Below, in pieces: positions 1,114-18,764 of a stretch of 34,244 nt of DNA. The notes beneath the pieces are model-generated. The model was not told the origin of the DNA and did not search any database. It saw nothing but the letters and a program-made list of their open reading frames with translations. The stretch lies in contig ONSU01000002.1 in assembly GCA_900320545.1 (NCBI GenBank), forward strand, positions 106,143 to 140,386, read 5' to 3'. Positions within the stretch are counted from its first letter, which is position 1. Every line of letters begins with the position of its first letter. The stretch is from an uncultured Bacteroidales bacterium (lineage in GTDB: Bacteria; Bacteroidota; Bacteroidia; Bacteroidales; UBA932). The position numbers and the translations under genes were made by a program.

Positions 1114-2181
1114 TTATACCTCGTCGGTCCAGTAGTCGAGGTTTTCGCGGAGGACGATATCGATGGGCTGGCACTCCCGGAGCGTATGGTCCGGGACGCC
1201 GTAGAGAAGATAGTGCAGCAGGGATTCGACGGCGCTGAAGCCCTGGTGCTCGGGGTGCTGGTTGATCAGGAAGTCCAGGGAGCCCTCGCGGATGCAGCGC
1301 TCGTTACCGGATGTCACGTCGAAGCCGCCGATGACCGGACGCCGGGACTCCCCTTTTACGGCATCGGAAATCAGGTAGCCGGTCGAGATGACGACGGCGA
1401 CGCCGCCGACATCGGGATTCGCCTTCAGGAATGAGCGGATCTCTTCGTGCGCTTCGTCGGGGCTGGCAGCCGGGAAACTCACCTCGCGCAGGGTCCTTTC
1501 GCGTCCTTGCTCCTCGAAAAACGCTTTGAATGCCGCGAGGCGGATGGCCGAGTTGTTGGACATCTGCGTTCCGACGCGACGCGGAAGCAGCAGCGCCAAT
1601 TCCTTTCCGGCGGGCGTGAATCCGTCCATCAGGCGCGCCATCAGCCGCCCGCAGGTTTCCTGATCGGCCAGATAGGACGCGACTGGATGGGTCTCGGGCA
1701 CCTTTCCATCGACGAAGACATAGGGAATATGCCGCCCGTCGAGACGGCCGCAGAGCTCCCTTGTCTCTTCCACGAAGGTCGTACCCAGGATGACAGCGGA
1801 GCAGTTCATCGTGGCGATCCGTCCGAACGCCTCCCGGCACGACAGGGAATTGAACTGGTCGAAGAAGACGTATTCGCTCTTGATGGAGATGTCGCCGTAC
1901 TCGCGAAATGCTTTGTCGAAGCCCTTGCGGACCAGGTCCCAGTACTCCCCTTTCTCCGAAGAAGGGATGGACACGACGATCCGGAAGGTCTTGCCGGTCT
2001 TCTTGAACGCCACGGCGGAAGTATGGAGGTTGTATTTGTAATTCTGCTTCTCCAGGACGGCCTGGACGGCGGCCATCGCCGCCTCGGACACCCGCCCGCG
2101 GTTGTGCAGCACCCGGTCCACGGTCCCCACGGAGACCCCGGCCAGGGCGGCTATCTGTTTGATGGTGAGTTGCTGAGACAT
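1114..2181 (-). CDS. LacI-family transcriptional regulator
   Basis: Predicted 355-residue DNA-binding repressor. An N-terminal LacI-type helix-turn-helix is clear (LTIKQIAALAGVSVGTVDRVL, about residues 4-24, then HNRGRVSE). A periplasmic-binding-protein-like sensor domain follows (from about residue 60, with the IGGFDVTSGNERCIREG segment near the C-terminus), so it should respond to a small sugar-type ligand. I chose the ATG at 2181, which leaves 4 nt after the uxuA stop; an ATG at 2208 would add nine residues and overlap uxuA without improving the domain. It is the last gene of the leftward uronate operon and the most obvious candidate to bind the paired palindromes at 4180-4193 and 4279-4292. 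That link is inference: the palindromes lack the central CG common in LacI-family operators. Confidence 0.88.
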   Translation of the reverse strand: MSQQLTIKQIAALAGVSVGTVDRVLHNRGRVSEAAMAAVQAVLEKQNYKYNLHTSAVAFKKTGKTFRIVVSIPSSEKGEYWDLVRKGFDKAFREYGDISIKSEYVFFDQFNSLSCREAFGRIATMNCSAVILGTTFVEETRELCGRLDGRHIPYVFVDGKVPETHPVASYLADQETCGRLMARLMDGFTPAGKELALLLPRRVGTQMSNNSAIRLAAFKAFFEEQGRERTLREVSFPAASPDEAHEEIRSFLKANPDVGGVAVVISTGYLISDAVKGESRRPVIGGFDVTSGNERCIREGSLDFLINQHPEHQGFSAVESLLHYLLYGVPDHTLRECQPIDIVLRENLDYWTDEV

Positions 2182-2185
2182 AAGA

Positions 2186-3352
2186 TTAAAGCGTCTTGGA
2201 TAAAGCATGCTCGATGCCGCGAAGTTCGGCGAGGGAGCGCAAGCGGCCGTAGCAGGAATAGCCCGGATTGGATTTGCGGTGGAGGTCGTCGCACATCTGG
2301 TGGCCGTGGTCGGGGCGGAGGAAGATGCGGAAACCGCGCTTCTGCTCCACTTCCAGCATCGCCTTCATCATTTCGAAGACGGGCACGTCGCCTTCCAGCA
2401 GATTGGCTTCGTAAAAATTGCCGTCGGCGTCACGCTTGGTGCTTCTCAAATGAACGAAATCCACCCGGTCACCGAATTCCCGCATCATCGCGGGGCAGTC
2501 GTTGTCGGGGCGGACGCCGAGCGAGCCGGTGCAGAGATTGAGGCCGTTGGAAGGATTGGGAACGGCGGCGACGAGTTTCCGGAAGTCTTCCGCCGTGCTC
2601 ATGATGCGCGGCAGACCGAGAATGGGATACGGCGGGTCGTCCGGGTGAATGACCATCCGGGAGCCGACCTCGTCGCATACGGGGCACACCTGCTGCAAGA
2701 AGAAGATGAGATTGCCCCGCAGAGTCTCGGCGTCGATCCCTTTGTAGCGGTCAAGCGCCGCCTGGAACTGCTCCAGCGTGAAACTTTCCTCGCTGCCGGG
2801 AAGCCCCGCGATCATGTTGCGGGTAATGAGGGCAACTTCATCGGGCGACATCGCCTCATAGCGGGCCTTCGCCCGGGCAATCTCTTCGGCGGAATATTCT
2901 TTCTCCGCGCCGGGGCGCCTCAGGATAAACAGGTCAAAGGCCAGAAACGCAGCCCGCTCGAATCGCAGGGCGCGGCTCCCGTCCGGCATCTCGTAAGCAA
3001 GGTCGGTCCGCGTCCAGTCCAACACCGGCATAAAGTTGTAGGTGATGCAATGGATGCCGCAGGCGGCCAGATTGCGGATGGTCTGCTTGTAATTCTCGAT
3101 ATAATCCAGATAGCGGCCTTCCCGCGTTTTGATGTGCTCGTGGACCGGAACGCTCTCCACGACGCTCCAGACCAGCCCCTTTTCGGCGCACCGGGCTTTG
3201 CGTTTCTCGATTTCTTCGACGGGCCACACTTCCCCGTTGGGAATGTGGTGCAGGGCGCTCACGATGTCGGTCACGCCGGCCTGGCGGATGTTGTCCAGCG
3301 TAACGGGATCATCAGGCCCGTACCAGCGCCAGGATTGTCGCATCAAAATCAT
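2186..3352 (-). CDS. uxuA: Mannonate dehydratase
   Basis: 388 residues, the usual length for UxuA (EC 4.2.1.8), which dehydrates D-mannonate to 2-keto-3-deoxygluconate in hexuronate catabolism in the cytoplasm. It is a TIM-barrel enzyme needing a divalent metal. Family motifs are present: [17 protein letters not shown] (about 102-118), HPDDPP (236-241), CTGSLG (274-279), FVHLRS (299-304) and RPDHGH (346-351), including the Cys and His residues of the metal site. The start codon overlaps the stop of the upstream SDR (ATGA), so the two are probably translationally coupled. The order SDR, uxuA, regulator matches uronate loci known in Bacteroidota. Confidence 0.96.
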
Positions 3353-4167
3353 ATGCTGAAGCTATTGAATCCGCCGTCCACCACGGCGATGGTGCCGGTG
3401 ACGCCCTTGGAAGCGTCGGAGGCGAGATAGTGCAGGGCGCCGACCAGTTCGTCCGCCTCCAGGAAGCGGCCGAAGGGGGTATGGCCCAGGATCTTGCGGG
3501 AGCGGTCGGTCAGCGAGCCGTCCGGGTTGGTCAGGAGAGCGCGGTTCTGGTTGCTGAGGATGAATCCGGGGGCGATGCCGTTCACGCGGATGCCCTCTCC
3601 GTATTTGATCGCCAGTTCCGCGGCGAGCCACTCCGTCCAGCTGGCCATCCCCGCCTTGGCGATGCCGTAGCCGGCCACGCGCGTGAGCGGACGGAACGAC
3701 GACATCGAGCAGAAGTTGATGATGCTGCCTTTCTTCTGCGCCACCATCGGTCGGATGAAGACCTTGGTCGGAATCACCGTGCCGAAGATATTCAGTTCGC
3801 AGACCTTCTTCATCGCCTCGATGTCGAGATCCTCGATGGTCTGGTCGGGCTGCACGTTGGCCGGTCCCATATTGCCGCCGGCCGCATTCAGCAGAATGTC
3901 GATAGTACCATAAGCGGCGAGGATATCGGCCAGGTTCCGCTCCAGCGCCTCTTCGGAGAGCACATCCGTGGGGAGGAACATCGCCTCTCCCCCGGCGGCC
4001 TTGATTTCCGCAACCATTTGGTTGCCCTTATCTGTGGAATGCGCCCTGGAGAGCAACACAACCTTGCATCCCTCGGCAGCAAAATACTTGGCGATGGTGG
4101 AGCCGAGCACGCCGCAGGCGCCGGTTATCACCACGACCTTCCCCTTGATGTCAAAAAGATTATTCAT
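3349..4167 (-). CDS. SDR-family D-mannonate oxidoreductase (fructuronate reductase)
   Basis: 272-residue classical short-chain dehydrogenase. The Rossmann motif TGACGVLG is at 15-22, NAAG at 94-97, the catalytic Ser in the FCSMSS region, and the YxxxK pair is Y167/K171. Its coupling to uxuA (4-base overlap) argues for the step before it, reduction of D-fructuronate to D-mannonate, a role an SDR fills in Bacteroidota in place of the E. coli UxuB family. I place the start at 4167 ([10 protein letters not shown]): this is where SDR homology begins. An in-frame ATG at 4206 would require translating through the promoter box and palindrome at 4180-4199. Substrate assignment rests on context. Confidence 0.85.
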
Positions 4168-4179
4168 ACGGATTATAAA

Positions 4180-4193
4180 TGTGTAAGGACACA
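4180..4193. promoter_or_regulatory. Candidate operator, left copy
   Basis: Palindrome TGTGT-AAGG-ACACA. Read on the minus strand, its first TG is the last TG of the leftward -7 box (TAAATTTG), so a bound protein would block open-complex formation. A second copy with identical arms sits in mirror position at 4279-4292. Confidence 0.65.
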
Positions 4194-4222
4194 AATTTAT
4201 AAACATCCGGTGACAAAGCCAA
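4192..4222 (-). promoter_or_regulatory. Promoter of the leftward uronate operon
   Basis: On the minus strand the -7 box TAAATTTG (4199 to 4192) matches the Bacteroidota consensus TAnnTTTG. A TTGG at 4222-4219 lies 19 bases upstream as a plausible -33. The box ends 24 nt before the SDR start at 4167. Confidence 0.65.
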
Positions 4223-4248
4223 GAGAATGGTCCTTTTTACGGGGTAAA

Positions 4249-4280
4249 TTTGCATTATTTCTTTTCTTTTTTTATTTTTG
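4249..4280 (+). promoter_or_regulatory. Promoter of the rightward sugar-acid operon
   Basis: TTTG at 4249-4252, a 20-base spacer, then TATTTTTG at 4273-4280. Both elements match the Bacteroidota -33/-7 consensus. The box ends 24 nt before the ATG at 4305, the same distance as on the opposite strand. Confidence 0.78.
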
Positions 4281-4292
4281 TGTGCGGACACA
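4279..4292. promoter_or_regulatory. Candidate operator, right copy
   Basis: Palindrome TGTGT-GCGG-ACACA, with arms identical to the copy at 4180-4193. It begins at the final TG of the rightward -7 box and covers the expected transcription start. The centres of the two copies are 99 bp apart. Confidence 0.65.
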
Positions 4293-4304: not shown

Positions 4305-5060
4305 ATGAACGCTTTGAAAGGAAAAGTTGCGGTCGTGACCGGCGGTTCCCGGGACATCGGCCGGGCCATCTCGATGAAACTGGCAGCCGAGGGGGCCAAA
4401 GTTTGCATCAATTATTGTCACAATGAAGCCAAGGCCCAGGAGACGCTGGAAGCCGTCAGGAGCATAGGCGGAGAGGCCATTCTCGTCAAGGCGGATGTCT
4501 CCAGGGCGGAAGACGTCAAGAGGATGTTTGAGGAGGCCGCCAAGGCTTTCGGCGGGCAGATCGATATTCTCGTGAACAATGCCGGCGGCATCGTCGGGCG
4601 CAAAGGGATCGAGGAGCAGGACGAGGAGTGGTTTCAGAAGCTGATGGACCTTAACTTCAAGAGCTGCTGGCTCTGCACCCGCGACGTGCTTTCCTATATG
4701 AAAAACGGCGGCAGCATCGTCAACATTTCCTCCCAGGCGGCCCGCGACGGAGGCGGTCCCGGATCGTCCATCTACGCGTGCGGCAAGGCGGCGATGCTTT
4801 GCCATACCCGCGCGATGGCCAAGGAACTCGGCCCCCGCAGCATCCGCGTCAACGCGGTCTGCCCCGGAATGATCAATACCTATTTCCACGACACCTTCAC
4901 CGCGCCGGAAGGCCGGGAAGCCCTGCACCGCAGCGCTCCGCTCCGGCGGGAAGGGGAAGCGGCGGAAGTGGCGAACCTCGTCAGTTTCCTCGCCAGTGAC
5001 GCTTCGGCCTATATCACGGGCAACGGCGTCGACATCAACGGCGGCTGCCTGTTCTCCTAA
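4305..5060 (+). CDS. SDR-family oxidoreductase (sugar-acid type)
   Basis: 251-residue classical SDR, full family length. TGGSRDIG is at 12-19, NNAG at 91-94, the catalytic Ser in VNISS (139-143), and Y157/K161 form the YxxxK pair. It resembles the broad FabG/KduD/IdnO group, so candidate reactions are 5-keto-gluconate or 2-keto-3-deoxygluconate oxidoreduction, or reduction of the unsaturated-uronate product DEH; sequence alone does not choose. It is the first gene of the rightward operon, directly behind a strong promoter and palindrome. Its stop is immediately followed by the ATG of the transporter with no spacing, which suggests tight co-expression. Confidence 0.85.
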   Translation: MNALKGKVAVVTGGSRDIGRAISMKLAAEGAKVCINYCHNEAKAQETLEAVRSIGGEAILVKADVSRAEDVKRMFEEAAKAFGGQIDILVNNAGGIVGRKGIEEQDEEWFQKLMDLNFKSCWLCTRDVLSYMKNGGSIVNISSQAARDGGGPGSSIYACGKAAMLCHTRAMAKELGPRSIRVNAVCPGMINTYFHDTFTAPEGREALHRSAPLRREGEAAEVANLVSFLASDASAYITGNGVDINGGCLFS

Positions 5061-6320
5061 ATGGCTGATTTTTTCAAAAAGATTCTGCGCTGGATCGCGC
5101 TGGTCGGGCCCGGACTGTTTTGTCTGGGCTTTACCATCGGTACGGGCAGCGTCACATCGATGGTCAAGTCCGGCAGCATGTTCGGCACCGGCCTGCTATG
5201 GGTGCTCGCCATCAGCGCTTTCTTCACCTGGGTGATGACCGACGCCTACGGCCGCTACGGCATCGCGACCGGCGACACCGCCATCCACGGCGTCAAAACC
5301 CATCTGAAAGGCGGAAAAACCTGGGCGGTCATCCTCATCGCCGGGCTCGTCGTCAGTCAGTGGATCAGCCTTTCCAGCATCCTCAACATCACCTCCAACG
5401 CCGTCTCGGAAGTCCTCTACCTATGCATCCCCGGACTCACCCCTTCGGCCAGTTACTGGATCGTGCTCGGGGCGGCCGTCCTGATTGCCGGCACGGTCTG
5501 GACCATCCTCAACAAGGGCAATTATTCCACCTTCGAGAAGATTCTATCCGTGCTGGTGACCCTGATGGGATTCGCCTTCATCCTCTCGATGTTCATCTCC
5601 CTCCCCGCTCCCGGCACCATCGTCCGCGGGTTCGTCCCCTCCATCCCGGAATCGGCCGATGCCAAACTTTTCATCGCCGCCTTCGTCGGCACGACCATGT
5701 CTTCGCCGACCTTCGTCATCCGGCCGATGATCCTCAAAAGCAAGGGCTGGGGCCCCGGTGACGGAAAATTGCAGCGGCGCGACGCCATCGTGAGCGCATC
5801 CCTGACCTTCATCATCAGCGCATCCATTATGATCTGCGCGGCGGGTGTGCTCTTCACGCGAGGTATCCAGGTCGAGAAGGTGCTGGATATGATCTATGTT
5901 CTCGAGCCGGTCGCCGGCCGGTTCGCCGTAGCGCTCTTCGTCACGGGCCTCCTGAGCGCCGGACTTTCGTCCATCTTCCCCATCATGATGCTTGCGCCCG
6001 AACTCATCAGCGACTACCGCGAAGGGGAAATGAAGACCGGGACGCCGCTGTTCCGCATTCTTACCGGCATCGCAGCCCTCGTCGGGCTTACCATCCCCAT
6101 CCTGGGCACACAGCCCGTCATCACGCAGATCGCCTCCCAGGTAACGCTCGTCTTCGTGCTGCCGCTGGTAATCCTGTCGATGATCTTCCTGATCAACAAG
6201 AAGTCGGTGATGGGCACCGCCCGTCCCGGGATCGTCTTCAACATCCTGATGGCCCTGGCGCTGGTTTTCGCCTGCGTCGTATCGTACACGGGCGTCGTCG
6301 CGCTCGGAAAACTGATCTGA
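5061..6320 (+). CDS. NRAMP-fold membrane transporter lacking metal-binding motifs
   Basis: 419 residues with about eleven hydrophobic segments and the overall pattern of the NRAMP (LeuT-fold) family, starting with a GPG-containing first helix. In true NRAMP metal carriers helix 1 carries DPGN and helix 6 carries an MPH motif, which together bind the metal. Here the first position reads GTGS (27-30) and the helix 6 region reads VGTTMSSPTF (209-218). The Asp, the Asn and the MPH signature are therefore missing. It lies directly between an SDR and a sugar-acid kinase, with zero- and two-base gaps. I infer it imports the operon's substrate, a hexonate or hexuronate, rather than a metal. An automatic label of 'divalent metal transporter' would likely be wrong. 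Confidence 0.8.
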   Translation: MADFFKKILRWIALVGPGLFCLGFTIGTGSVTSMVKSGSMFGTGLLWVLAISAFFTWVMTDAYGRYGIATGDTAIHGVKTHLKGGKTWAVILIAGLVVSQWISLSSILNITSNAVSEVLYLCIPGLTPSASYWIVLGAAVLIAGTVWTILNKGNYSTFEKILSVLVTLMGFAFILSMFISLPAPGTIVRGFVPSIPESADAKLFIAAFVGTTMSSPTFVIRPMILKSKGWGPGDGKLQRRDAIVSASLTFIISASIMICAAGVLFTRGIQVEKVLDMIYVLEPVAGRFAVALFVTGLLSAGLSSIFPIMMLAPELISDYREGEMKTGTPLFRILTGIAALVGLTIPILGTQPVITQIASQVTLVFVLPLVILSMIFLINKKSVMGTARPGIVFNILMALALVFACVVSYTGVVALGKLI

Positions 6321-6322
6321 TC

Positions 6323-7369
6323 ATGTCCTATTCCCTTCTGGTTCCCACAAGTATGGGTGTCCGCCTCACGCCGGCCGGCCGCCAGCCCGCCCATACCGGC
6401 GGGACCTTTACCCTCCAGGCCACCAGCGCCGAAACCAATGTCGCCAGCATTTCATCCAGTCTGGGCCTTCCCGTCAAGGTCCTGACCACCTTTGTCAAAG
6501 GGCATCCTTTCGCGGCATTCATCCGGGCCGATCTCTGCGGACGGGGGATGGACGTCGAGGGGCCGGAAGTGCCCCAGGGCGGCCCATGGGGCTATCGGCA
6601 CCAGATCAACATCGCCGACAGCGGGGCGGGACTCCGGGGACCGCGCGTCTGGAACGACCGCGCCGGAGAAGTCGGCCGGACGCTCAGCGCGGAAGATTTC
6701 GACCTGGACCGCATCTTCGAGGATGAAGGCGTGGAAATGATCCATCTGAGCGGACTCATCGCCGCGCTCGCCCCCACTTTCAGTCTCACGCTCGCCGAAA
6801 CGGCGATGCAATATGGCACCCGCATCAGTTTCGATCTCAATTACCGGGCCTCTTTCTGGGAGGGCCGAGAGGCGGAGCTCCGGGACACCTTCAAGGCCAT
6901 CGCCTCCCTTTCGGATATCCTGATCGGCAACGAAGAGGATTTCCAGCTGTGCCTGGGAATCGAGGGACCCGCGGCCGGCGGGAAGGATCTCGCCGGAAAG
7001 ACGGACGCCTTCCGCGCCATGATCGGAGATATCCGGCGGCAATATCCTCGGGCGAAGGTGGTCGCGACGACACTTCGGGAGGTTCTCGACGCCGAAACGC
7101 ATCTCTGGGGCGCCATCGTGTCCGATCCGGAGCGGACGGCCGTCATTCCGCCCAAAGTGATCAGCGTGCTGGACCGCATCGGCGGCGGAGACGGTTTCGT
7201 CGGCGGACTCCTGTACGGACTTCTGAAGAATTGGGACATCGAGAAGTGCGCGCAGTTCGGCTGGGCCTGCGGAGTGCTTGCCGTCACGCTGGAGACCGAC
7301 TATGCCCGCCCTGCCGACGAGGAGCAGATATGGAGCATCTGGAACGGCAACGCAAGAGTAAAAAGATGA
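6323..7369 (+). CDS. PfkB-family sugar-acid kinase (KDG kinase type)
   Basis: 348 residues. The C-terminal PfkB signature is LDRIGGGDGFVGG, whose Asp in GGGD is the catalytic base; Bacteroidota 2-keto-3-deoxygluconate kinases have a near-identical DRVGGGD motif. The ISFDLNYR strand and IGNEEDFQLCLG also match KDG kinases, and the tail GNARVKR resembles theirs. The N-terminal substrate side is atypical: the usual GGxxxNVA reads TSAETNVA. The expected reaction is KDG to KDPG with ATP. A gluconate kinase role is an alternative because the next gene is 6-phosphogluconate dehydrogenase. Its start is 2 nt after the transporter stop, and its stop overlaps the next start (ATGA). Confidence 0.85.
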   Translation: MSYSLLVPTSMGVRLTPAGRQPAHTGGTFTLQATSAETNVASISSSLGLPVKVLTTFVKGHPFAAFIRADLCGRGMDVEGPEVPQGGPWGYRHQINIADSGAGLRGPRVWNDRAGEVGRTLSAEDFDLDRIFEDEGVEMIHLSGLIAALAPTFSLTLAETAMQYGTRISFDLNYRASFWEGREAELRDTFKAIASLSDILIGNEEDFQLCLGIEGPAAGGKDLAGKTDAFRAMIGDIRRQYPRAKVVATTLREVLDAETHLWGAIVSDPERTAVIPPKVISVLDRIGGGDGFVGGLLYGLLKNWDIEKCAQFGWACGVLAVTLETDYARPADEEQIWSIWNGNARVKR

Positions 7370-8784
7370 CAAATCCTTCTGATATCGGCCTTGTCGGCCT
7401 CGGCGTGATGGGAGCGTCCCTCGCCCGCAATATGGAATCGAAAGGATTCCACGTCAGCGTATTCAATTACATTCCTTCCGTGACCGCCGAGTTCCTTGAA
7501 GGGCCCGGGAAAGGGAAGAATTTCTACGGTGCCACCTCCTACGCATCGCTTGTCGCCTCGCTGTCGGTACCGAGGAAGGTCTTTTTGATGGTTACGGCAG
7601 GGAAAGCGGTGGATGCTGTCCTCTCCGAACTGGTCCCGCTGCTCGCTCCGGGCGATGTCATCATCGACGGGGGCAATTCCGATTTCCACGATACCCGCCG
7701 TCGCCACGAAATGCTCACCGCCAAGGGCATCCGCTTCGTCGGATGCGGGGTGTCCGGCGGAGAAGAAGGCGCCTTGAAGGGCCCTGCCATGATGCCAGGC
7801 GGATCTCCGGAAGCCTGGCCGCTCATCCGTCCGATTTTCCAGGCCATCGCGGCCAAAGCGGCGGACGGAACGCCCTGCTGCGACTGGATCGGTCCCGACG
7901 GCAGCGGCCATTTCGTCAAAATGGTCCACAACGGCATCGAGTACGGGGATATCGAACTCATTTGCGAGTGTTACCAGCTGATGCGGGACGGGCTGGGTCT
8001 GACGAATCCGGAAATGCAGGAGACTTTCATGAGGTGGAACGAAGGGGAACTGGGCAGTTACCTTATCGGCATCACGTCGCAGATCCTGGGGAAAAAGGAT
8101 TCCCCGGACGACGGCTTTCTCATCGACTCCATCCTGGATACCGCCGGGCAGAAAGGAACGGGGAAATGGACCGTACAGGCTGCTCTGGACGAGGGAATTC
8201 CCCTGACACTCATCGGAGAAGCGGTCTTCGCCCGCTGCCTCTCCGCCCGAAAGGAGGAGCGGGTCGCCGCAGCCGGGGTGCTCTCCGGGCCGGAGATTCC
8301 CGGTCGAGCCGGGGGAAATCAAGACCTGACCGGCCAGCTGAAAGACGCCCTCCTCGCCGCCAAGATCGTCTCTTACGCCCAGGGCTTCGACCTCCTTCGG
8401 GCCGCCTCTGAAGAATACGGCTGGCAGCTGGACTGCGGGCGGATCGCCCGCCTCTGGCGGGGCGGCTGCATCATCCGGAGCGTCTTTCTCGACACCATCC
8501 ACGATGCCTTCCGGGAGCAGCCCGGCCTGCAGAACCTGATGCTGGCCCCCTGGTTCCGCGACACGCTCGCCCGCGCCCAGGAAGGTTGGCGGCAAGCGGT
8601 CTGTACGGCCACCCGCCTCGGCATACCGGTCCCGGCCCTCAGCAGCGCTCTCTCCTATTACGATGGCTATCGCTGCGCCCGGTCAGGCGCCAACCTGCTT
8701 CAAGCGCAGCGCGACCTGTTCGGCGCCCACACTTATGAGCGCACCGACCGCCCGCGCGGGGAATTCTTCCACACGCAGTGGTAA
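7366..8784 (+). CDS. gnd: 6-phosphogluconate dehydrogenase (decarboxylating)
   Basis: 472 residues, the normal family length. It oxidatively decarboxylates 6-phosphogluconate to ribulose 5-phosphate in the pentose phosphate pathway. Motifs: dinucleotide loop GLGVMG (11-16), GVSGGEEGALKGP (128-140), GHFVKMVHNGIEYG with the catalytic Lys at 185, the KGTGKWT loop, and the C-terminal AQRDLFGAHTYER substrate segment. At the end of the second beta strand E. coli Gnd has an Asn-Arg pair that holds the NADP 2'-phosphate; here it reads FNYIPS (33-38), so the Arg is Tyr, and NAD use is possible. It is the last gene of the operon and ends 3 nt from the convergent next gene. Confidence 0.95.
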   Translation: MTNPSDIGLVGLGVMGASLARNMESKGFHVSVFNYIPSVTAEFLEGPGKGKNFYGATSYASLVASLSVPRKVFLMVTAGKAVDAVLSELVPLLAPGDVIIDGGNSDFHDTRRRHEMLTAKGIRFVGCGVSGGEEGALKGPAMMPGGSPEAWPLIRPIFQAIAAKAADGTPCCDWIGPDGSGHFVKMVHNGIEYGDIELICECYQLMRDGLGLTNPEMQETFMRWNEGELGSYLIGITSQILGKKDSPDDGFLIDSILDTAGQKGTGKWTVQAALDEGIPLTLIGEAVFARCLSARKEERVAAAGVLSGPEIPGRAGGNQDLTGQLKDALLAAKIVSYAQGFDLLRAASEEYGWQLDCGRIARLWRGGCIIRSVFLDTIHDAFREQPGLQNLMLAPWFRDTLARAQEGWRQAVCTATRLGIPVPALSSALSYYDGYRCARSGANLLQAQRDLFGAHTYERTDRPRGEFFHTQW

Positions 8785-8787
8785 CAA

Positions 8788-10137
8788 TCAGGCATTAACG
8801 TCCCAGGGACCGCCGGGACCGAAGACTTTCTCTACGAGATCATCGTAAATACCCGCCCGTTTGGCGAGGTCCAGCAGATTGATGCGGTAGCGCATCAGCT
8901 GGGTGTATGGGACCATATCCTTCAACATTTGGCGGCTCACGCCGATATCGGAAGGATCGGTCGGAGCGCCGACAATCCGGAAGCACTCCTGCATCTTCCC
9001 GAAAGGCCACACCTGGGCACGGTATTGCTCCTTCAGCGCCGGCCAGTTGTCCCGGACCTTTGTCAGCTGCTCCCGGACCGCCGCCTTGTCACCATACTTT
9101 TTGGTAATCTCACGGACACCGAGTTCAGGATCGACGAAGCCCGCGAAGACCTTCCGGGCGCGGGCCTGCTCCTCTTCGAGGGACGGCCAGGCGGCTACGC
9201 AGGCATCGATATCGAGCGAAGTGAGATCCATCTTGAGGAACGCGTCGAAGAAAGCGCACATCGTCAGCGTGCCGATGGCAACCTGAAAGCCGTGGCTCTG
9301 GAGTTTCCCTTTGTAGCGGTGCGCCGTCATATCCAGATAATGGCTGAAGAGGTGGTCGGTGCAGGAGGCCGGCCGGCTGGAACGGGCGGCCTGCATCGCG
9401 AATCCGCTGTATGTGAGGCCCTCGAAGAGCAGGGCGATCGCGTCGGGATCGCCCGCCGCGACACCCTCCGGATCGGAGAGCATCTCGTCCAGGACATCCT
9501 GCAGGACGTGCCAGGCGGCGGGATGGATGGGCTCTGTCCCGAACAGATCGGCAATCATCCACTCCGCTCCGCAGGGCACCTTGGCCGCCAGATCGGCATA
9601 GCCGGCCGCGGTGAGTTCTTTCGGCGCGGCGGCGATCACGTCGATATCCGCGACGACCGCCACCGGAGCCGGGCACTCGAAGGTCTGCTTGAGGCCCTTA
9701 TAAGTAATGGAAGCGCCGAAGGACGTGTATCCGTCCACCGACGCGGCCGTCGGCAGGGTCAGATAGGACTGGCCGTGGTGATGGGACGAGAGTTTGCAGA
9801 GGTCGTTGATGACTCCGGAACCCACCGACACCAGCACGGCGTCAGGATTGGCGTCCAGCAGTGCGTCCACCCGCTCCACGTAACCCCACTCCGCGTGGAA
9901 TTCTTCCTCCTGAATGATGTCGCATTCCACGGGAATCCCGGCCGCCCGGAAGGAGGCGAAAACCTTCTCCCCGAGAGCCGGCCAGGTGTGAATGTCCGCG
10001 ACAATCATCGCCTTTCTGCCGGGGAAGCAGTCGTTAAAAACTTCGGCCGCCTTATCCGCGGCGCCACGGCCCATTTCGAACACTTTCGTGTCCGTTGCGA
10101 TGGAAAGGGCCTTCTGAATTCTTTCCTGTGCGCTCAT
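8788..10137 (-). CDS. sn-glycerol-1-phosphate dehydrogenase family (AraM/EgsA-like)
   Basis: 449 residues, iron-containing-alcohol-dehydrogenase-like fold. The family reduces dihydroxyacetone phosphate to sn-glycerol 1-phosphate, using Zn or Ni. Visible features: a GSGVINDLCK nucleotide loop (106-115), PTAASVDGYTS (129-139), and probable metal ligands D182 (AGYADLAAK), H266 (DHLFSHYLD; H262 adjacent) and H282 (SHGFQVAIGT). In Bacillus and some Bacteroides the relatives sit near arabinose genes; here the neighbour is the sugar-acid operon, read convergently with a 3-nt gap. The tail beyond about residue 350 is longer than in B. subtilis AraM. The exact physiological substrate is not certain. 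Confidence 0.88.
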   Translation of the reverse strand: MSAQERIQKALSIATDTKVFEMGRGAADKAAEVFNDCFPGRKAMIVADIHTWPALGEKVFASFRAAGIPVECDIIQEEEFHAEWGYVERVDALLDANPDAVLVSVGSGVINDLCKLSSHHHGQSYLTLPTAASVDGYTSFGASITYKGLKQTFECPAPVAVVADIDVIAAAPKELTAAGYADLAAKVPCGAEWMIADLFGTEPIHPAAWHVLQDVLDEMLSDPEGVAAGDPDAIALLFEGLTYSGFAMQAARSSRPASCTDHLFSHYLDMTAHRYKGKLQSHGFQVAIGTLTMCAFFDAFLKMDLTSLDIDACVAAWPSLEEEQARARKVFAGFVDPELGVREITKKYGDKAAVREQLTKVRDNWPALKEQYRAQVWPFGKMQECFRIVGAPTDPSDIGVSRQMLKDMVPYTQLMRYRINLLDLAKRAGIYDDLVEKVFGPGGPWDVNA

Positions 10138-14954: not shown

Positions 14955-16792
14955 CGCACCTCGAACTGCTTGCTCCGGCAAGGACCCTTGACATCGGCAT
15001 CGCAGCCATTGACTGCGGTGCCGATGCGGTGTATATCGCCGCCGGGGAGTTCGGAGCCAGGCAGGATGCGGGCAACAGCGTCGCGGACATCGCGGCGCTC
15101 TGCACCTATGCGCACCGGTTCGGAGCCAGGATTTTCGTCACGGTCAACACCATCCTTTATGACGATGAACTGTCCCGGGCCGGCGACCTCGTGGAGGCAT
15201 TGACGGCGGCGGGGGCCGACGCGCTGATCGTACAGGATCCGGCCGTCCTCGCCCTGGCCCGGGAGCGGGGCGTAAAGATTCCGATGCACGCTTCCACCCA
15301 GTGCTCAATCCGGACGCCGGAGAGGGCCCGGTTCCTGGAAAGTCTCGGTTTCTCGCGGCTGGTCCTGGAGCGGGAACTCTCCCTGGAGGAAATACGGGCC
15401 GTTTCGGAAGCCGTGGAAGCCGAAATCGAGGTTTTCGTACACGGAGCCGTCTGCGTATGTTACAATGGACAGTGCTATCTTTCGCAGGCCATCGAAGGCC
15501 GGAGCGCCAACCGGGGCCGATGCATCCAGGCCTGCCGGAGCCTGTACGACCTCGTAGATGCGAAAGGGATCACGCTCGTGAAGAAAAAGGCCCTCCTGTC
15601 CCTGAAGGATATGAACCTCATCGGGCATGTAGAGGATCTCGCACGCGCGGGCGCGTGTTCCTTCAAGATTGAAGGGCGGCTCAAGAGCCGCTCGTATGTA
15701 ATGAATACGGTGAAGGCCTATTCCGAAGCCCTTGACGCCCTCTGCCGGACGCACCCCGGCGAATTCACCCGGGCCGCATTCGGCCACGGGACCACCGCTT
15801 TTACGCCCGACCTTGATAAAACCTTCAACAGGGGCTATACCACACTGTTTCTGAACGGACGGCAACGCGGGATGTCCTCTATGGACACGGCCGGCAGCAT
15901 CGGAGAGAATATCGGGGTCGTCACCGCCGTCAAGGCGATCGGAGACAATCTGCGGGTGACCGTCAGGCCCGACGGAAGGGACATCGTCCTCGCCAACGGC
16001 GACGGATTCTGCTTTGCGGGTCCGGGAGGAGAAGCCGTGGGATTTCGGGGAGATGTCTGCGAGGGGAATGTCATCCGATGCAAGGCCGTCGGCGGCCTGC
16101 GGCCGGGCGTCAGGATCTGGCGCAATATCAGCGCCGCATTTGAAAAACGCCTCCGTGCCGAAAAAAGCGCCCGGGAGATGGACGTGCACGTCGATGTCCT
16201 CCTCAGGGATGACGGACTCACGGCGGAGGCCCGCTCCGAGGACGGGCGGCACGTTTCCGCCACGATTCCCGTCCCGGCGGAAACCGCCCGCGACAAGGAT
16301 CGGATGGAGGCCGTCATACGCGGCCAGCTCAGCAAAAAAACCGATATCTACGCCTTCAAGACCGACAAGGTCCGCAGTCTTCGGACAGACGGGAGCATCC
16401 CCCTGATGAGCGCCGCTTTCCTGAACGCAATCCGAAGAACCCTCTGCGAAAAACTGAACGCACTCCCCTGCAAAGCCATCCCGATGGCTTCCGGACGGAC
16501 CTTTACCGTCGCGGCTCCCCCGGCTATCTCCTACAAGGAGAATGTCGCAAACCACCTGGCCGAGGAAACGTACCGGTCCCGCGGCGCGCGGGAAATCGGC
16601 AAGGCCTACGAATGCGAGCCGGTCCCGGGAGCCGAACTGATGCGTTCGAAGTACTGTATCCGCTACGAACTGGGCCTCTGCCCCGTCCATCAGGGCGCGG
16701 CCGACACGGGGGCGCTCCGGCTGGTCAACAACGGGCGCAGTCTCCGACTCGGCTTCGACTGCGCCCGCTGCGAAATGACCGTACTCGGCTAA
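14951..16792 (+). CDS. Peptidase U32 family protein (RlhA-type)
   Basis: 613 residues. The N-terminal U32 domain (LELLAPARTLDIGIAAIDCGADAVY and MHASTQCSI) is followed by the family Cys signature: HGAVCVCYNGQCYLS and NRGRCIQACR, with C168, C175, C191 and C195 as probable iron-sulfur ligands, plus NFKIEGR-like FKIEGRLKS. A C-terminal DUF3656/collagenase-like extension completes it. In E. coli the close relative RlhA is needed for hydroxylation of 23S rRNA C2501; related U32 proteins act in ubiquinone or tRNA hydroxylation. I favour an rRNA hydroxylation role for this long form. Its last four bases overlap the convergent PIN-toxin gene. Confidence 0.9.
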   Translation: MTHLELLAPARTLDIGIAAIDCGADAVYIAAGEFGARQDAGNSVADIAALCTYAHRFGARIFVTVNTILYDDELSRAGDLVEALTAAGADALIVQDPAVLALARERGVKIPMHASTQCSIRTPERARFLESLGFSRLVLERELSLEEIRAVSEAVEAEIEVFVHGAVCVCYNGQCYLSQAIEGRSANRGRCIQACRSLYDLVDAKGITLVKKKALLSLKDMNLIGHVEDLARAGACSFKIEGRLKSRSYVMNTVKAYSEALDALCRTHPGEFTRAAFGHGTTAFTPDLDKTFNRGYTTLFLNGRQRGMSSMDTAGSIGENIGVVTAVKAIGDNLRVTVRPDGRDIVLANGDGFCFAGPGGEAVGFRGDVCEGNVIRCKAVGGLRPGVRIWRNISAAFEKRLRAEKSAREMDVHVDVLLRDDGLTAEARSEDGRHVSATIPVPAETARDKDRMEAVIRGQLSKKTDIYAFKTDKVRSLRTDGSIPLMSAAFLNAIRRTLCEKLNALPCKAIPMASGRTFTVAAPPAISYKENVANHLAEETYRSRGAREIGKAYECEPVPGAELMRSKYCIRYELGLCPVHQGAADTGALRLVNNGRSLRLGFDCARCEMTVLG

Positions 16793-17181
16793 GGAGTTAT
16801 CCAGTCCGCAATCTTAAGACCCGGAATGCGGGAGAAGTGCCGGACGTTATGCGTAACCAGCGTATACCCGTTTGCAAGGGCCGTCGCGGCAATAAACAGA
16901 TCCATATCTTTCAAGCCGATTCCTTCGGATTCGAGACGGGCTCGAGTCCGGGCGTAAGTCTTCACTGCGGATGATATCGGCACAATCGGGAGAGTCTCCT
17001 CCAAAAAGCTCAGAATAGGCTCCAATCTCTTCTTGTCTCCCTTATAGACACCGACATACAGTTCGGCCAAACTGATTTCCGAAATGGCGCATTTGGTCAA
17101 ACCGGCCCGGTTCATCCGGTCCTGGACGGATGTATTGCCCCGGCCCAAGGAAATCAAAGTGTCAGAATCAATCAGATACAT
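16789..17181 (-). CDS. PIN-domain toxin (VapC type)
   Basis: 130 residues, the standard length of VapC/FitB-type ribonucleases. Acidic residues of the PIN active site are visible: D5 (MYLIDSDTL), E40 (ISLAELYVG) and D94 (KDMDLFIAATAL); the C-terminal THNVRHF motif carries His where many members have Asp, which is also common. It would cleave tRNA or other RNA when released from its antitoxin. It starts 3 nt after the AbrB-like antitoxin stop, the normal antitoxin-first order, and shares its stop region with the convergent U32 gene. Confidence 0.9.
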   Translation of the reverse strand: MYLIDSDTLISLGRGNTSVQDRMNRAGLTKCAISEISLAELYVGVYKGDKKRLEPILSFLEETLPIVPISSAVKTYARTRARLESEGIGLKDMDLFIAATALANGYTLVTHNVRHFSRIPGLKIADWITP

Positions 17182-17184
17182 AAG

Positions 17185-17487
17185 CTACCAGGGTAATTCA
17201 CGTGTTTCTTTTCCCGTATCGTCCCGAAGCTGACGGACATACTCGACGGGATCCATATCCCTCCCTCCCCAGGCGTCCTCGTCCACGAGTTTCGCCAGGG
17301 CCTTGAACGGCCCGGTAAAGGGCCCGGTATACGGCTCCGCGGCCGGAAGGAAGCGGAGCGAGAGCGCGCCGTCCTCTTTCTGTTCGATTTCCACCTTGGA
17401 TCCTTCTTTGGCGCCGATCTTCTTCAGAAGGGCGGAAGGGATAATGATGCCCCGGCTGTTGCCGATGCGGATGACTGTCGTTTCCAT
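17185..17487 (-). CDS. AbrB/MazE-type antitoxin
   Basis: 100 residues from the ATG at 17487 (METTVIRIGNSRGIIIP). An SpoVT-AbrB swapped-hairpin DNA-binding domain occupies residues 1-45. The C-terminal part, with a TGPFTGPF repeat and an acidic DEDAWGGRDMDP segment, should bind and neutralise the PIN toxin. A longer frame reaching back to 17574 exists, but it would run through the -33/-7 promoter and the inverted repeat, so I reject it. The operator immediately before the start suggests autoregulation. Confidence 0.87.
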   Translation of the reverse strand: METTVIRIGNSRGIIIPSALLKKIGAKEGSKVEIEQKEDGALSLRFLPAAEPYTGPFTGPFKALAKLVDEDAWGGRDMDPVEYVRQLRDDTGKETRELPW

Positions 17488-17515
17488 ACCTTTGTCGATT
17501 TCAATGACAAAGGTA
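17487..17515. promoter_or_regulatory. Inverted repeat, probable antitoxin operator
   Basis: Perfect 10-bp arms: TACCTTTGTC at 17487-17496 and GACAAAGGTA at 17506-17515, with a 9-nt spacer. One arm contains the minus-strand -7 box; the other ends at the antitoxin start codon. Binding here would repress the pair, as AbrB/MazE antitoxins commonly do. Confidence 0.75.
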
Positions 17516-17539
17516 GGAAGATTATTACAGAAAAACAAA
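17508..17539 (-). promoter_or_regulatory. Promoter of the toxin-antitoxin pair
   Basis: Minus strand: TTTG (17539-17536), a 20-base spacer, TACCTTTG (17515-17508). Both elements match the Bacteroidota consensus. Confidence 0.8.
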
Positions 17540-17570
17540 TCTGTAACAACCTTTTGGGCCGCTGCCGCCG

Positions 17571-18764
17571 TCATAGCAGTTCCAATGCCAGTTCCACATC
17601 GCCGAAGGTACCCTTCTTGCCGCTATACTTCTCCACATAACGGCGGGAAAGCTGCCCGCGCCAGACGATATCGTCGGCAGATTTGAGCGGAAGGTCGATG
17701 TCGATCCCGAAAACCTTGGACTTGACCGTCACCTTGGTGGAGCAGTGCCAGGTAGTCCTCTTGCCGCCGTCATCCTCGGTAATCATAAAGGCGACGTTAT
17801 CGAGCTGTCCCGTCCATTCCGACACCAGGACGGCGTTGAAAGGAATCTCCTGGCCGATCTGGTCGCGCTTGACGACGATCATAAAGTCCGTGATGGAAGG
17901 GGTGTACAGCGAGATGTCCTCGACGGTCGCGGCGGTAAAGTTCTCTACGGCGCCGCAGCGGACGAAGAACTCCGACGCGCCGGCGAACCAGGTGTCGTAA
18001 CACCGGTTGGCCTTGAAGGAACGGAGCACCCAGGTCCTGATGTCGCCGCCGGCGTCCGCCTTGACGCTGATGAGACCGCCGCCGGTGCCCCAGTCGGGAT
18101 TCTCGCGGCGCAGCACTTCCAGACTCTGGAAAGAAGCGTCGTCGTTACGGTTGATGACCCATACGGGCCGGGAGCGGGCCATCTCCTCGTCGACGACGAC
18201 GCTCCGGAGCGTCCCGTCATCGCCGGCCACGAAACCGAGGTTCTTGTCGGAATTGTCTTCGGGGTCGAAGGTGATGACGGGCGAAGTCTCTCCGTCCCAC
18301 CCGTCGGAGAAAGGCCAGTAAATCTGCACGTCGGATGCCGTAAGGGCGTCGAGGAATTCTTCCGCGCTCACGCCGCCGTCCGCCGCTTTGGTGCCGTAGC
18401 GGGCGGTAACCGCCTCGGTAAGCAGCGCCCGGAGCGGGGTGTCGTAGGTCTTGGAGGAGGCCTTGACAGGACTGTCTCCGACGCCGGCTCCGGGCGTCTC
18501 GAACAGGTCCTTCATCGTATACTCCTCATCGTAGCCGTTTCCGGTGGAGGAGGTGACCGCATCGTGGACTTCCCCCATCTGGGAGGATCCGATCGGCACC
18601 GAGGAGAGGATTTGCGCGACCTCTTCGAGAGTCACGTAAGAGGGAAGGGGATCTTTGCCGGACGTGTGGTCGCGAAGATCGTCATCGAGATGCTCGCACG
18701 CGAGGAGCGAAAGGGCGAGGGTGACAAGGACAAGTTTCCTTGCAGGGTAAGTTCTCTTTTTCAT
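17571..18764 (-). CDS. Surface-exposed lipoprotein of unknown function
   Basis: 397 residues from the ATG at 18764 (MKKRTYPARKL); a frame extension to 18857 would run through palindromic leader DNA and spoil the signal peptide. The type II signal peptide ends in LSLLAC with the lipid-carrying Cys at 23. The residues after it (EHLDDD) are the acidic pattern that in Bacteroidota acts as a lipoprotein export signal to the cell surface. The rest is acidic, beta-rich and ends in a YVEKYSGKKGTFGDVELALELL tail; I recognise no domain. It is not in an operon with its neighbours. The role could be adhesion, binding or envelope interaction; no function can be assigned. Confidence 0.78.
   Translation of the reverse strand: MKKRTYPARKLVLVTLALSLLACEHLDDDLRDHTSGKDPLPSYVTLEEVAQILSSVPIGSSQMGEVHDAVTSSTGNGYDEEYTMKDLFETPGAGVGDSPVKASSKTYDTPLRALLTEAVTARYGTKAADGGVSAEEFLDALTASDVQIYWPFSDGWDGETSPVITFDPEDNSDKNLGFVAGDDGTLRSVVVDEEMARSRPVWVINRNDDASFQSLEVLRRENPDWGTGGGLISVKADAGGDIRTWVLRSFKANRCYDTWFAGASEFFVRCGAVENFTAATVEDISLYTPSITDFMIVVKRDQIGQEIPFNAVLVSEWTGQLDNVAFMITEDDGGKRTTWHCSTKVTVKSKVFGIDIDLPLKSADDIVWRGQLSRRYVEKYSGKKGTFGDVELALELL

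What the first reader, a model, noticed from the sequence alone, without database searches (positions are those of the whole stretch)
4180..4292. Mirror-image operator pair fused to both -7 boxes of a divergent sugar-acid promoter
The palindrome TGTGT-N4-ACACA occurs twice in the 137-bp divergent region. On each strand it starts at the last TG of a TAnnTTTG box. Each box ends exactly 24 nt before its start codon. The copies are 99 bp apart centre to centre. Such symmetry suggests one regulator switching both operons together, perhaps by looping. The LacI-family protein of the left operon is the natural candidate, but the palindromes lack the usual central CG.
Basis: partly seen in the sequence, partly recalled or inferred. 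Interest (0 to 1): 0.7.

Follow-up and report, generated by a model that had tools for sequence, protein, structure and literature searches.

The report
LacI operators on a sugar-acid promoter pair
Two matching DNA sites sit right on top of two back-to-back promoters in a Bacteroidales-type genome; they are most likely ordinary landing sites for a LacI-type repressor that also has sites beside a nearby polysaccharide-degradation gene cluster.

Summary
TGTGT-N4-ACACA occurs exactly twice in the 137-bp divergent region (4180-4193, 4279-4292). Each copy begins at the TG of a TAnnTTTG box ending 24 nt before its start codon; the copies are 99 bp apart. One detail is wrong: the right copy (TGTGTGCGGACACA) has the central CG; only the left (TGTGTAAGGACACA) lacks it. 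The pair belongs to a regulon. The genome has six exact copies, all within 31 kb of one contig that also holds a SusC/SusD cluster. In 400 genomes of the genus, TGTGTNCGNACACA is found in 58 of 73 with a homologue of the window's LacI protein and in 15 of 327 without. The operator is fused to the -7 box in 13 of 15 testable SDR2 promoters, the window's included, and in 17 of 19 SDR1-uxuA promoters of a paralogous LacI group. Best explanation: classical LacI-type repression by covering the -7/start region, relieved by an unknown inducer. Looping is not supported: spacings are unphased and the predicted structure shows no tetramerisation helix. The left operator may be a paralogue-type operator retuned in place. 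New member of a known kind; modest interest.

The parts
4180..4193 (-). left operator, TGTGTCCTTACACA read towards SDR1; lacks central CG
4279..4292 (+). right operator, TGTGTGCGGACACA; central CG present
4192..4199 (-). -7 box TAAATTTG of the left promoter, sharing TG with the operator; ends 24 nt before the ATG
4220..4222 (-). TTG 20 nt upstream of the left -7 box, candidate -33 element
4273..4280 (+). -7 box TATTTTTG of the right promoter, sharing TG with the operator; ends 24 nt before the ATG
4249..4252 (+). TTTG 20 nt upstream of the right -7 box, candidate -33 element
1114..2181 (-). LacI-family regulator, last gene of the left operon (the conserved start MSQQ lies 27 nt inside the longest ORF, 1114-2208)
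2186..3352 (-). uxuA, mannonate dehydratase
   Evidence: TIGR00695, 562.7 bits, cut-off 199.55
3349..4167 (-). SDR1, D-mannonate oxidoreductase-like SDR (left operon, first gene)
   Evidence: NF006132, 328.4 bits, cut-off 281
4305..5060 (+). SDR2, short-chain dehydrogenase (right operon, first gene)
5061..6320 (+). Nramp-family transporter
6323..7369 (+). PfkB-family kinase; NCBIfam hits to KDG kinases are all below their cut-offs
7366..8784 (+). gnd, 6-phosphogluconate dehydrogenase (start inferred from MTNPSDIGLVG)

Best explanation
The two palindromes are operators of the LacI-family protein encoded at 1114-2181. A dimer bound at each site covers the promoter from the end of the -7 box into the start of the transcript, much as the first lac operator does in E. 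coli (recalled comparison), and so blocks RNA polymerase on both the SDR1-uxuA-lacI and the SDR2-Nramp-PfkB-gnd operons. The same protein binds further copies 6 to 31 kb away, in and beside a SusC/SusD cluster, so one signal opens both polysaccharide uptake and sugar-acid breakdown. lacI lies in the left operon, so it represses itself. Shown by sequence: the sites, their position on the promoters, their conservation, and their co-occurrence with the LacI gene. Inferred: that this protein binds them, that binding represses, that the genes of each side form operons, and that an intermediate of uronate breakdown is the inducer.
For: Six exact sites in the genome, all on C29:79853-110434; reversed control 2. 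TGTGTNCGNACACA 5 times, control 0. Motif in 58 of 73 genomes with the LacI (E<=1e-50) against 15 of 327 without, Fisher p 2.4e-41; 19 of 21 genomes with a LacI of >=63% identity, 65 sites. Of the 15 genomes with sites but no such LacI, 11 were fetched: flank GC 0.41-0.61, inside long open frames, against flank GC 0.19-0.45 at 48 LacI-associated sites. All 16 SDR2 promoters have the exact palindrome (15 at 23-36 bp before the start, one at 70); 13 of 15 testable, the window included, have it fused to TAnnTTTG, 12 of those 13 with TTG 19-20 nt upstream. A 17th SDR2 promoter (L168, G356) is fused too. TAnnTT precedes the site at the fused offset in 16 of 81 strand views (16 of 41 sites) against 4 of 261 other TGTGT words. 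Of 12 distinct sites on contigs away from lacI, 4 lie directly upstream of a SusC-SusD pair and one at an SDR2 promoter. The Nramp gene is in 17 of 400 genomes, all with this LacI. HTH and core domains pass Pfam cut-offs.
Against: No binding or expression data. The left operator lacks the central CG, and its conservation could not be tested: in the closest relative (G246) the contigs break in this region. G295 (65% LacI) and G279 (LacI fragment) have no site. Most genomes are fragmented drafts. The paralogous LacI group has a similar motif, so part of the co-occurrence (39 of 52 genomes) comes from it. Several loci are near-identical (G256/G281; G261/G263/G304; G414/G369), so counts are not all independent. 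Of the 12 distinct sites away from lacI, 3 (L163, L165, L169) lie near no recognised homologue of the window's cluster. Two of 15 testable SDR2 promoters are not fused (L086, L093). Activation rather than repression cannot be excluded from sequence.
Confidence: 0.84

Rival explanations
1. A LacI tetramer bridges the two operators and represses both promoters through a DNA loop.
For: Two sites 99 bp apart, each on a promoter; 99 bp is 9.0 turns at the 11-bp repeat sometimes seen in vivo (recalled), and pairs of sites occur elsewhere in the regulon.
Against: At 10.5 bp per turn 99 bp is 9.43 turns; spacings of neighbouring sites (57, 59, 61, 68, 68, 70, 73, 73, 76) share no phase. In the predicted structure (mean pLDDT 87.3) the last strand, 341-343, is followed only by an 8-residue helix, 345-352, and the end. 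In 12 of the 13 loci where lacI faces SDR2 the gap holds a single exact operator (L093 has two).
Confidence: 0.07
2. Another regulator, for example a paralogous LacI protein or a regulator encoded elsewhere, binds these sites.
For: A paralogous LacI group (43-47% identical in the 18 loci fetched) uses the related operator TGTG-N-ACGT-N-CACA on SDR1-uxuA promoters, and the left promoter resembles the paralogue-type promoters of G034 and G122.
Against: In the window's genome (93.3% complete) no such paralogue was found; its other two LacI hits are 30% identical. The preferred sequence differs between groups (TGTGTGCGCACACA against TGTGNACGTNCACA). Eleven proteins of the nearby cluster scanned with Pfam gave no DNA-binding domain; the cluster's other proteins were not scanned.
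Confidence: 0.07
3. The two palindromes are chance or a non-regulatory repeat.
For: Allowing two mismatches the window holds no excess.
Against: 0 of 60,000 shuffles of the gap hold two exact copies; conservation and co-occurrence.
Confidence: 0.02

Closest known systems
LacI-family local regulons of sugar-acid catabolism in Bacteroides (KdgR, UxaR, UxuR, UxmR; PMC3878776 and PMC4052901, passages read)
   Same: LacI-family regulator beside sugar-acid catabolic genes in Bacteroidales; even palindrome with central CG; autoregulation by position
   Different: Their motif logos are in figures and supplements that I could not see, and orthology to BT1434, BT0487 etc. was not tested; here the sites also lie beside SusC/SusD clusters and a Nramp/gnd operon
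E. coli lac operator O1 / LacI (recalled)
   Same: Operator placed over the start of transcription, repression by blocking polymerase
   Different: No tetramerisation helix in the predicted structure and no phased auxiliary operator; Bacteroidetes -7/-33 promoter rather than -10/-35
Engineered LacI-repressed promoters in Bacteroides thetaiotaomicron (PMC9259675, passages read)
   Same: LacI-type repressors work on Bacteroides promoters, with operators between -33 and -7 and near the start site
   Different: Synthetic; there more than 80% of factors were inadequate with single operators and tandem ones were used, whereas here a single natural operator shares its TG with the -7 box

Membership tests
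LacI/GalR transcription factors | N-terminal LacI HTH domain | tested here: met
   PF00356 46.7 bits, cut-off 27
LacI/GalR transcription factors | periplasmic-binding-protein-like effector core | tested here: met
   PF13407 91.3 bits, cut-off 35.1; match to 3gbv, a putative LacI-family regulator
LacI/GalR transcription factors | even palindromic operator with central CG (1173 of 1303 regulators in PMC4052901, section 9) | tested here: met
   5 of 6 exact genome sites, including the right copy; the left copy fails. That the protein binds them is inferred
LacI/GalR transcription factors | sugar-type effector relieves DNA binding | not testable with these tools
   needs binding assays
Bacteroides UxuR/KdgR orthologue | orthology to BT1434 or BT0487 | not tested
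   those sequences were not fetched; the 15 NCBIfam LacI-type hits all fall far below their cut-offs
Tetrameric looping LacI | C-terminal tetramerisation helix | tested here: not met
   AlphaFold2 model: only an 8-residue helix after the last core strand; oligomeric state itself not tested
Polysaccharide utilization locus | adjacent SusC and SusD homologues | tested here: met
   C29:94927-98202 SusC-like (Plug, TonB barrel) and C29:93097-94914 SusD (PF07980 163.8 bits)

The most novel reading that the evidence does not exclude
The left operator records a regulon takeover caught part-way. The uxuA operon arrived with a promoter built for a paralogous LacI repressor (operator TGTGTTCGTGCACA in G034 and G122). 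In this lineage, where that paralogue was not found, the operator was rewritten in place to the half-sites of the polysaccharide-cluster LacI (TGTGTCCTTACACA) while keeping the -33/-7 geometry, losing the central CG on the way.
Probability: 0.4. Interest if true: 0.5.

Novelty: new member of a known kind. Interest (0 to 1): 0.34.

Why it matters
It gives a testable LacI-family regulon in Bacteroidales of which several relatives come from rumen MAGs, in which a repressor appears to have sites at SusC/SusD clusters together with sugar-acid catabolism. Hybrid two-component systems are a major class of regulators of polysaccharide genes in Bacteroides (start of the abstract of PMC11253607), so a LacI-type repressor there would be a less usual arrangement. 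It also shows a conserved promoter design in which the Bacteroidetes -7 box and a LacI-type half-site share their TG.

Tried and rejected
Looping was considered and rejected as unsupported: spacings are unphased and no tetramerisation helix is predicted.

That the -7/operator fusion might be a general rule for Bacteroidales LacI proteins was tested on 25 loci of more distant LacI homologues (L012-L036). Only 1 of 25 (L013, TATCTTTGTGTGCGAACACA) shows it at the fused offset, against 3 of 25 at one unrelated offset (+8), so there is no support for a general rule. The scan had at most 1.5 kb of flank per locus and required a central CG and at least 5 of 6 arm pairs.

Whether the motif follows the LacI gene or the right-hand operon could not be separated: all 17 genomes with the Nramp gene also have the LacI gene.

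On checking, one of them (L129) lies about 1.9 kb from its SusC hit. I then fetched the other contigs visible's list (which was cut), giving 13 listed CG sites on 12 contigs of seven close-group genomes (G034, G225, G256, G356, G395, G414, G418). Two of the 13 (L126, L164) are the same site at overlapping contig ends, so 12 distinct: 4 directly upstream of SusC-SusD, 1 at an SDR2 promoter, 4 others (L129, L166, L167, second site of L168) with cluster homologues in the stretch, 3 with none.

Rows dropped: L111 was left out of the paralogue promoter count because its SDR1 hit was only 32% identical; the 19 promoters counted are 17 of the 18 paralogue-group loci fetched plus L150 and L154. Of 52 genomes whose best LacI is more distant, loci from 18 were fetched. 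Of the 21 close-group genomes, G279 (a LacI fragment) was not fetched. L153 starts inside the -7 box and was left out of the fused count. L161 (G249) starts inside SDR2 and has no promoter to read. The start codon of SDR2 in L084 is uncertain. The 48 sites are those in the loci fetched by then, not all 65. Sites in 4 of the 15 genomes without the LacI (G166, G182, G358, G406) were not fetched.

Papers: PMC4052901 passages and section 9 read; PMC3878776, PMC9259675, PMC4666351 and PMC7366714 passages only; PMC11253607 only the start of its abstract in a listing; all others listings only. I found no report of this regulon in the listings, which search open-access full text only. The motif logos of PMC3878776 were not visible.

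Full report
What is there. The divergent gap between SDR1 (start 4167, minus) and SDR2 (start 4305, plus) is 137 bp. It holds exactly two copies of TGTGT-N4-ACACA, at 4180-4193 and 4279-4292. No other exact copy is in the window. In 60,000 dinucleotide shuffles of the gap, 16 had at least one copy and none had two. On each outward strand the palindrome begins with the TG that ends a TAnnTTTG box; each box ends 24 nt before the ATG, and a TTG lies 20 nt upstream of each box. TAnnTTTG at -7 and TTTG near -33 is the consensus of the primary sigma factor of Bacteroides (passage in PMC7366714), so both are complete candidate promoters.

Genes. Left: SDR1 (D-mannonate oxidoreductase-like), uxuA, lacI. 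Right: SDR2, a Nramp-family transporter, a PfkB kinase, gnd. The lacI product has a LacI HTH and a periplasmic-binding core above Pfam cut-offs but matches no NCBIfam model at its cut-off. Nine of the ten named loci encoding relatives are Bacteroidales, Bacteroidia or Prevotella MAGs, several labelled as sheep rumen, water-buffalo reticulum or RUG; the tenth is a weak Erwinia match.

The regulon in this genome. The exact palindrome occurs six times in 2.55 Mb, all on one contig between C29:79853 and C29:110434; the reversed control pattern occurs twice. Five of six fit TGTGTSCGSACACA. A further site with one mismatch (C29:104241) makes a row of three with spacings of 68 and 70 bp. The four exact sites outside the window lie upstream of a LamG protein gene, between a phosphodiesterase gene and a GH63-like gene, and (two) between two divergent genes for fn3-like proteins. 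SusC and SusD homologues lie in the run of minus-strand genes, C29:90136-103935, that begins beside the row of three. The cluster also has a glucuronoyl-esterase-like, a heparinase II/III-like and a metallo-beta-lactamase-fold protein.

Relatives. In the same 400 genomes of the genus, 73 have a LacI match at E<=1e-50 and 73 have TGTGTNCGNACACA; 58 have both, 15 only the LacI, 15 only the motif, 312 neither (Fisher p 2.4e-41). Among 21 genomes with a LacI of at least 63% identity, 19 have the motif, 65 sites in all; G295 and G279 have none. In the other 52, whose best match is 37-47% identical, 39 have it. Sites in 11 of the 15 genomes without the LacI were fetched: all lie in long open frames with flank GC 0.41-0.61, as chance matches in genes would, while 48 LacI-associated sites have flank GC 0.19-0.45. 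Open-frame length alone does not separate the groups (28 to 1301 codons at the LacI-associated sites).

Position. Sixteen SDR2 promoters, the window's included, were read; all have the exact palindrome, 15 at 23-36 bp before the start and one (L086) at 70. Fifteen reach far enough to judge the -7 box, and in 13 the palindrome is fused to TAnnTTTG with the same shared TG; 12 of those 13 have TTG 19-20 nt upstream. The exceptions are L086 (site upstream of the box) and L093 (site 8 nt downstream of it). A further SDR2 promoter found later (L168, G356) is fused as well. Over 41 sites in the window's contig and 19 neighbourhoods, 16 are fused at this offset; the next commonest offset has 7 strand views. 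In 81 strand views that is 16, against 4 of 261 for other TGTGT words in the same DNA. Of 12 distinct sites on contigs away from lacI in seven close-group genomes (those visible in the cut list), 4 lie directly upstream of SusC-SusD pairs, 1 at an SDR2 promoter, 4 have other cluster homologues in the stretch and 3 have none. This points to a diffusible regulator.

The paralogues. A LacI group 43-47% identical (18 loci fetched) lies divergent from SDR1-uxuA. Its SDR1 promoters, with two more from G034 and G122, carry TTG-N19 to 22-TAnnTTTGTG-N-ACGT-N-CACA-like operators, fused to the -7 box in 17 of 19 read. The design is therefore shared by both groups. The window's left promoter resembles those of G034 and G122, which carry TGTGTTCGTGCACA at the same place with the same 20-nt spacing. 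No LacI of that group was found in the window's genome (93.3% complete). The simplest reading is that the uxuA operon came with a paralogue-type promoter and its operator was rewritten to suit the resident LacI. This rests on resemblance by eye of three short promoters and is not a phylogenetic proof.

Mechanism. A LacI dimer on either operator would cover the end of the -7 box and the first transcribed bases, so simple occlusion is the most economical reading. Looping is not needed and not supported: 99 bp is 9.43 turns at 10.5 bp, other spacings are unphased, and in the AlphaFold2 model (mean pLDDT 87.3, ten sequences) only an 8-residue helix follows the last core strand. The match to 3gbv runs to within 7 residues of that chain's end. 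The inducer is unknown; an intermediate of uronate breakdown is a guess from the genes.

Known or new. LacI-family regulons for uronate use in Bacteroides (KdgR, UxaR, UxuR, UxmR) are in print (passages in PMC3878776, PMC4052901), and about 20% of LacI-regulated operons have more than one site (PMC4052901, section 9). This is a new regulon of that known kind. Its less usual points are sites at SusC/SusD clusters and the TG shared between the -7 box and the operator. A test on 25 more distant LacI loci found the fusion in one only, so a general rule of the order is not supported.

Noticed in passing
G000 contig C29:104103, 104171, 104241 (about 2 kb left of the window start): Three operators in a row (the third with one mismatch), 68 and 70 bp apart, between two divergent genes for large fn3-like proteins; G129 keeps a 68-bp pair, its second member with one mismatch.
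   Followed up: partly
G000 contig C19:37876 (L114): A one-mismatch copy preceded by TATCTTTG; the only gene-like ORF it points at is convergent, so probably a chance match.
   Followed up: partly
window 8788-10137 (-): Glycerol-1-phosphate-dehydrogenase-like iron-containing alcohol dehydrogenase (Pfam PF13685), convergent with gnd; role in the pathway unclear.
   Followed up: no
window 16789-17574 (-): Two neighbouring small ORFs that look like a PIN-domain toxin with an AbrB-type antitoxin (label recalled from the sequence, not searched).
   Followed up: no
L013 position 2644 (G062, another family of the order): TATCTTTGTGTGCGAACACA: the same fused box and operator beside a LacI homologue only 31% identical.
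   Followed up: no
G246 contigs C45 and C12: The closest relative's assembly breaks in the divergent gap, leaving SDR1 from codon 42 on one contig and the right operator at the start of another.
   Followed up: partly
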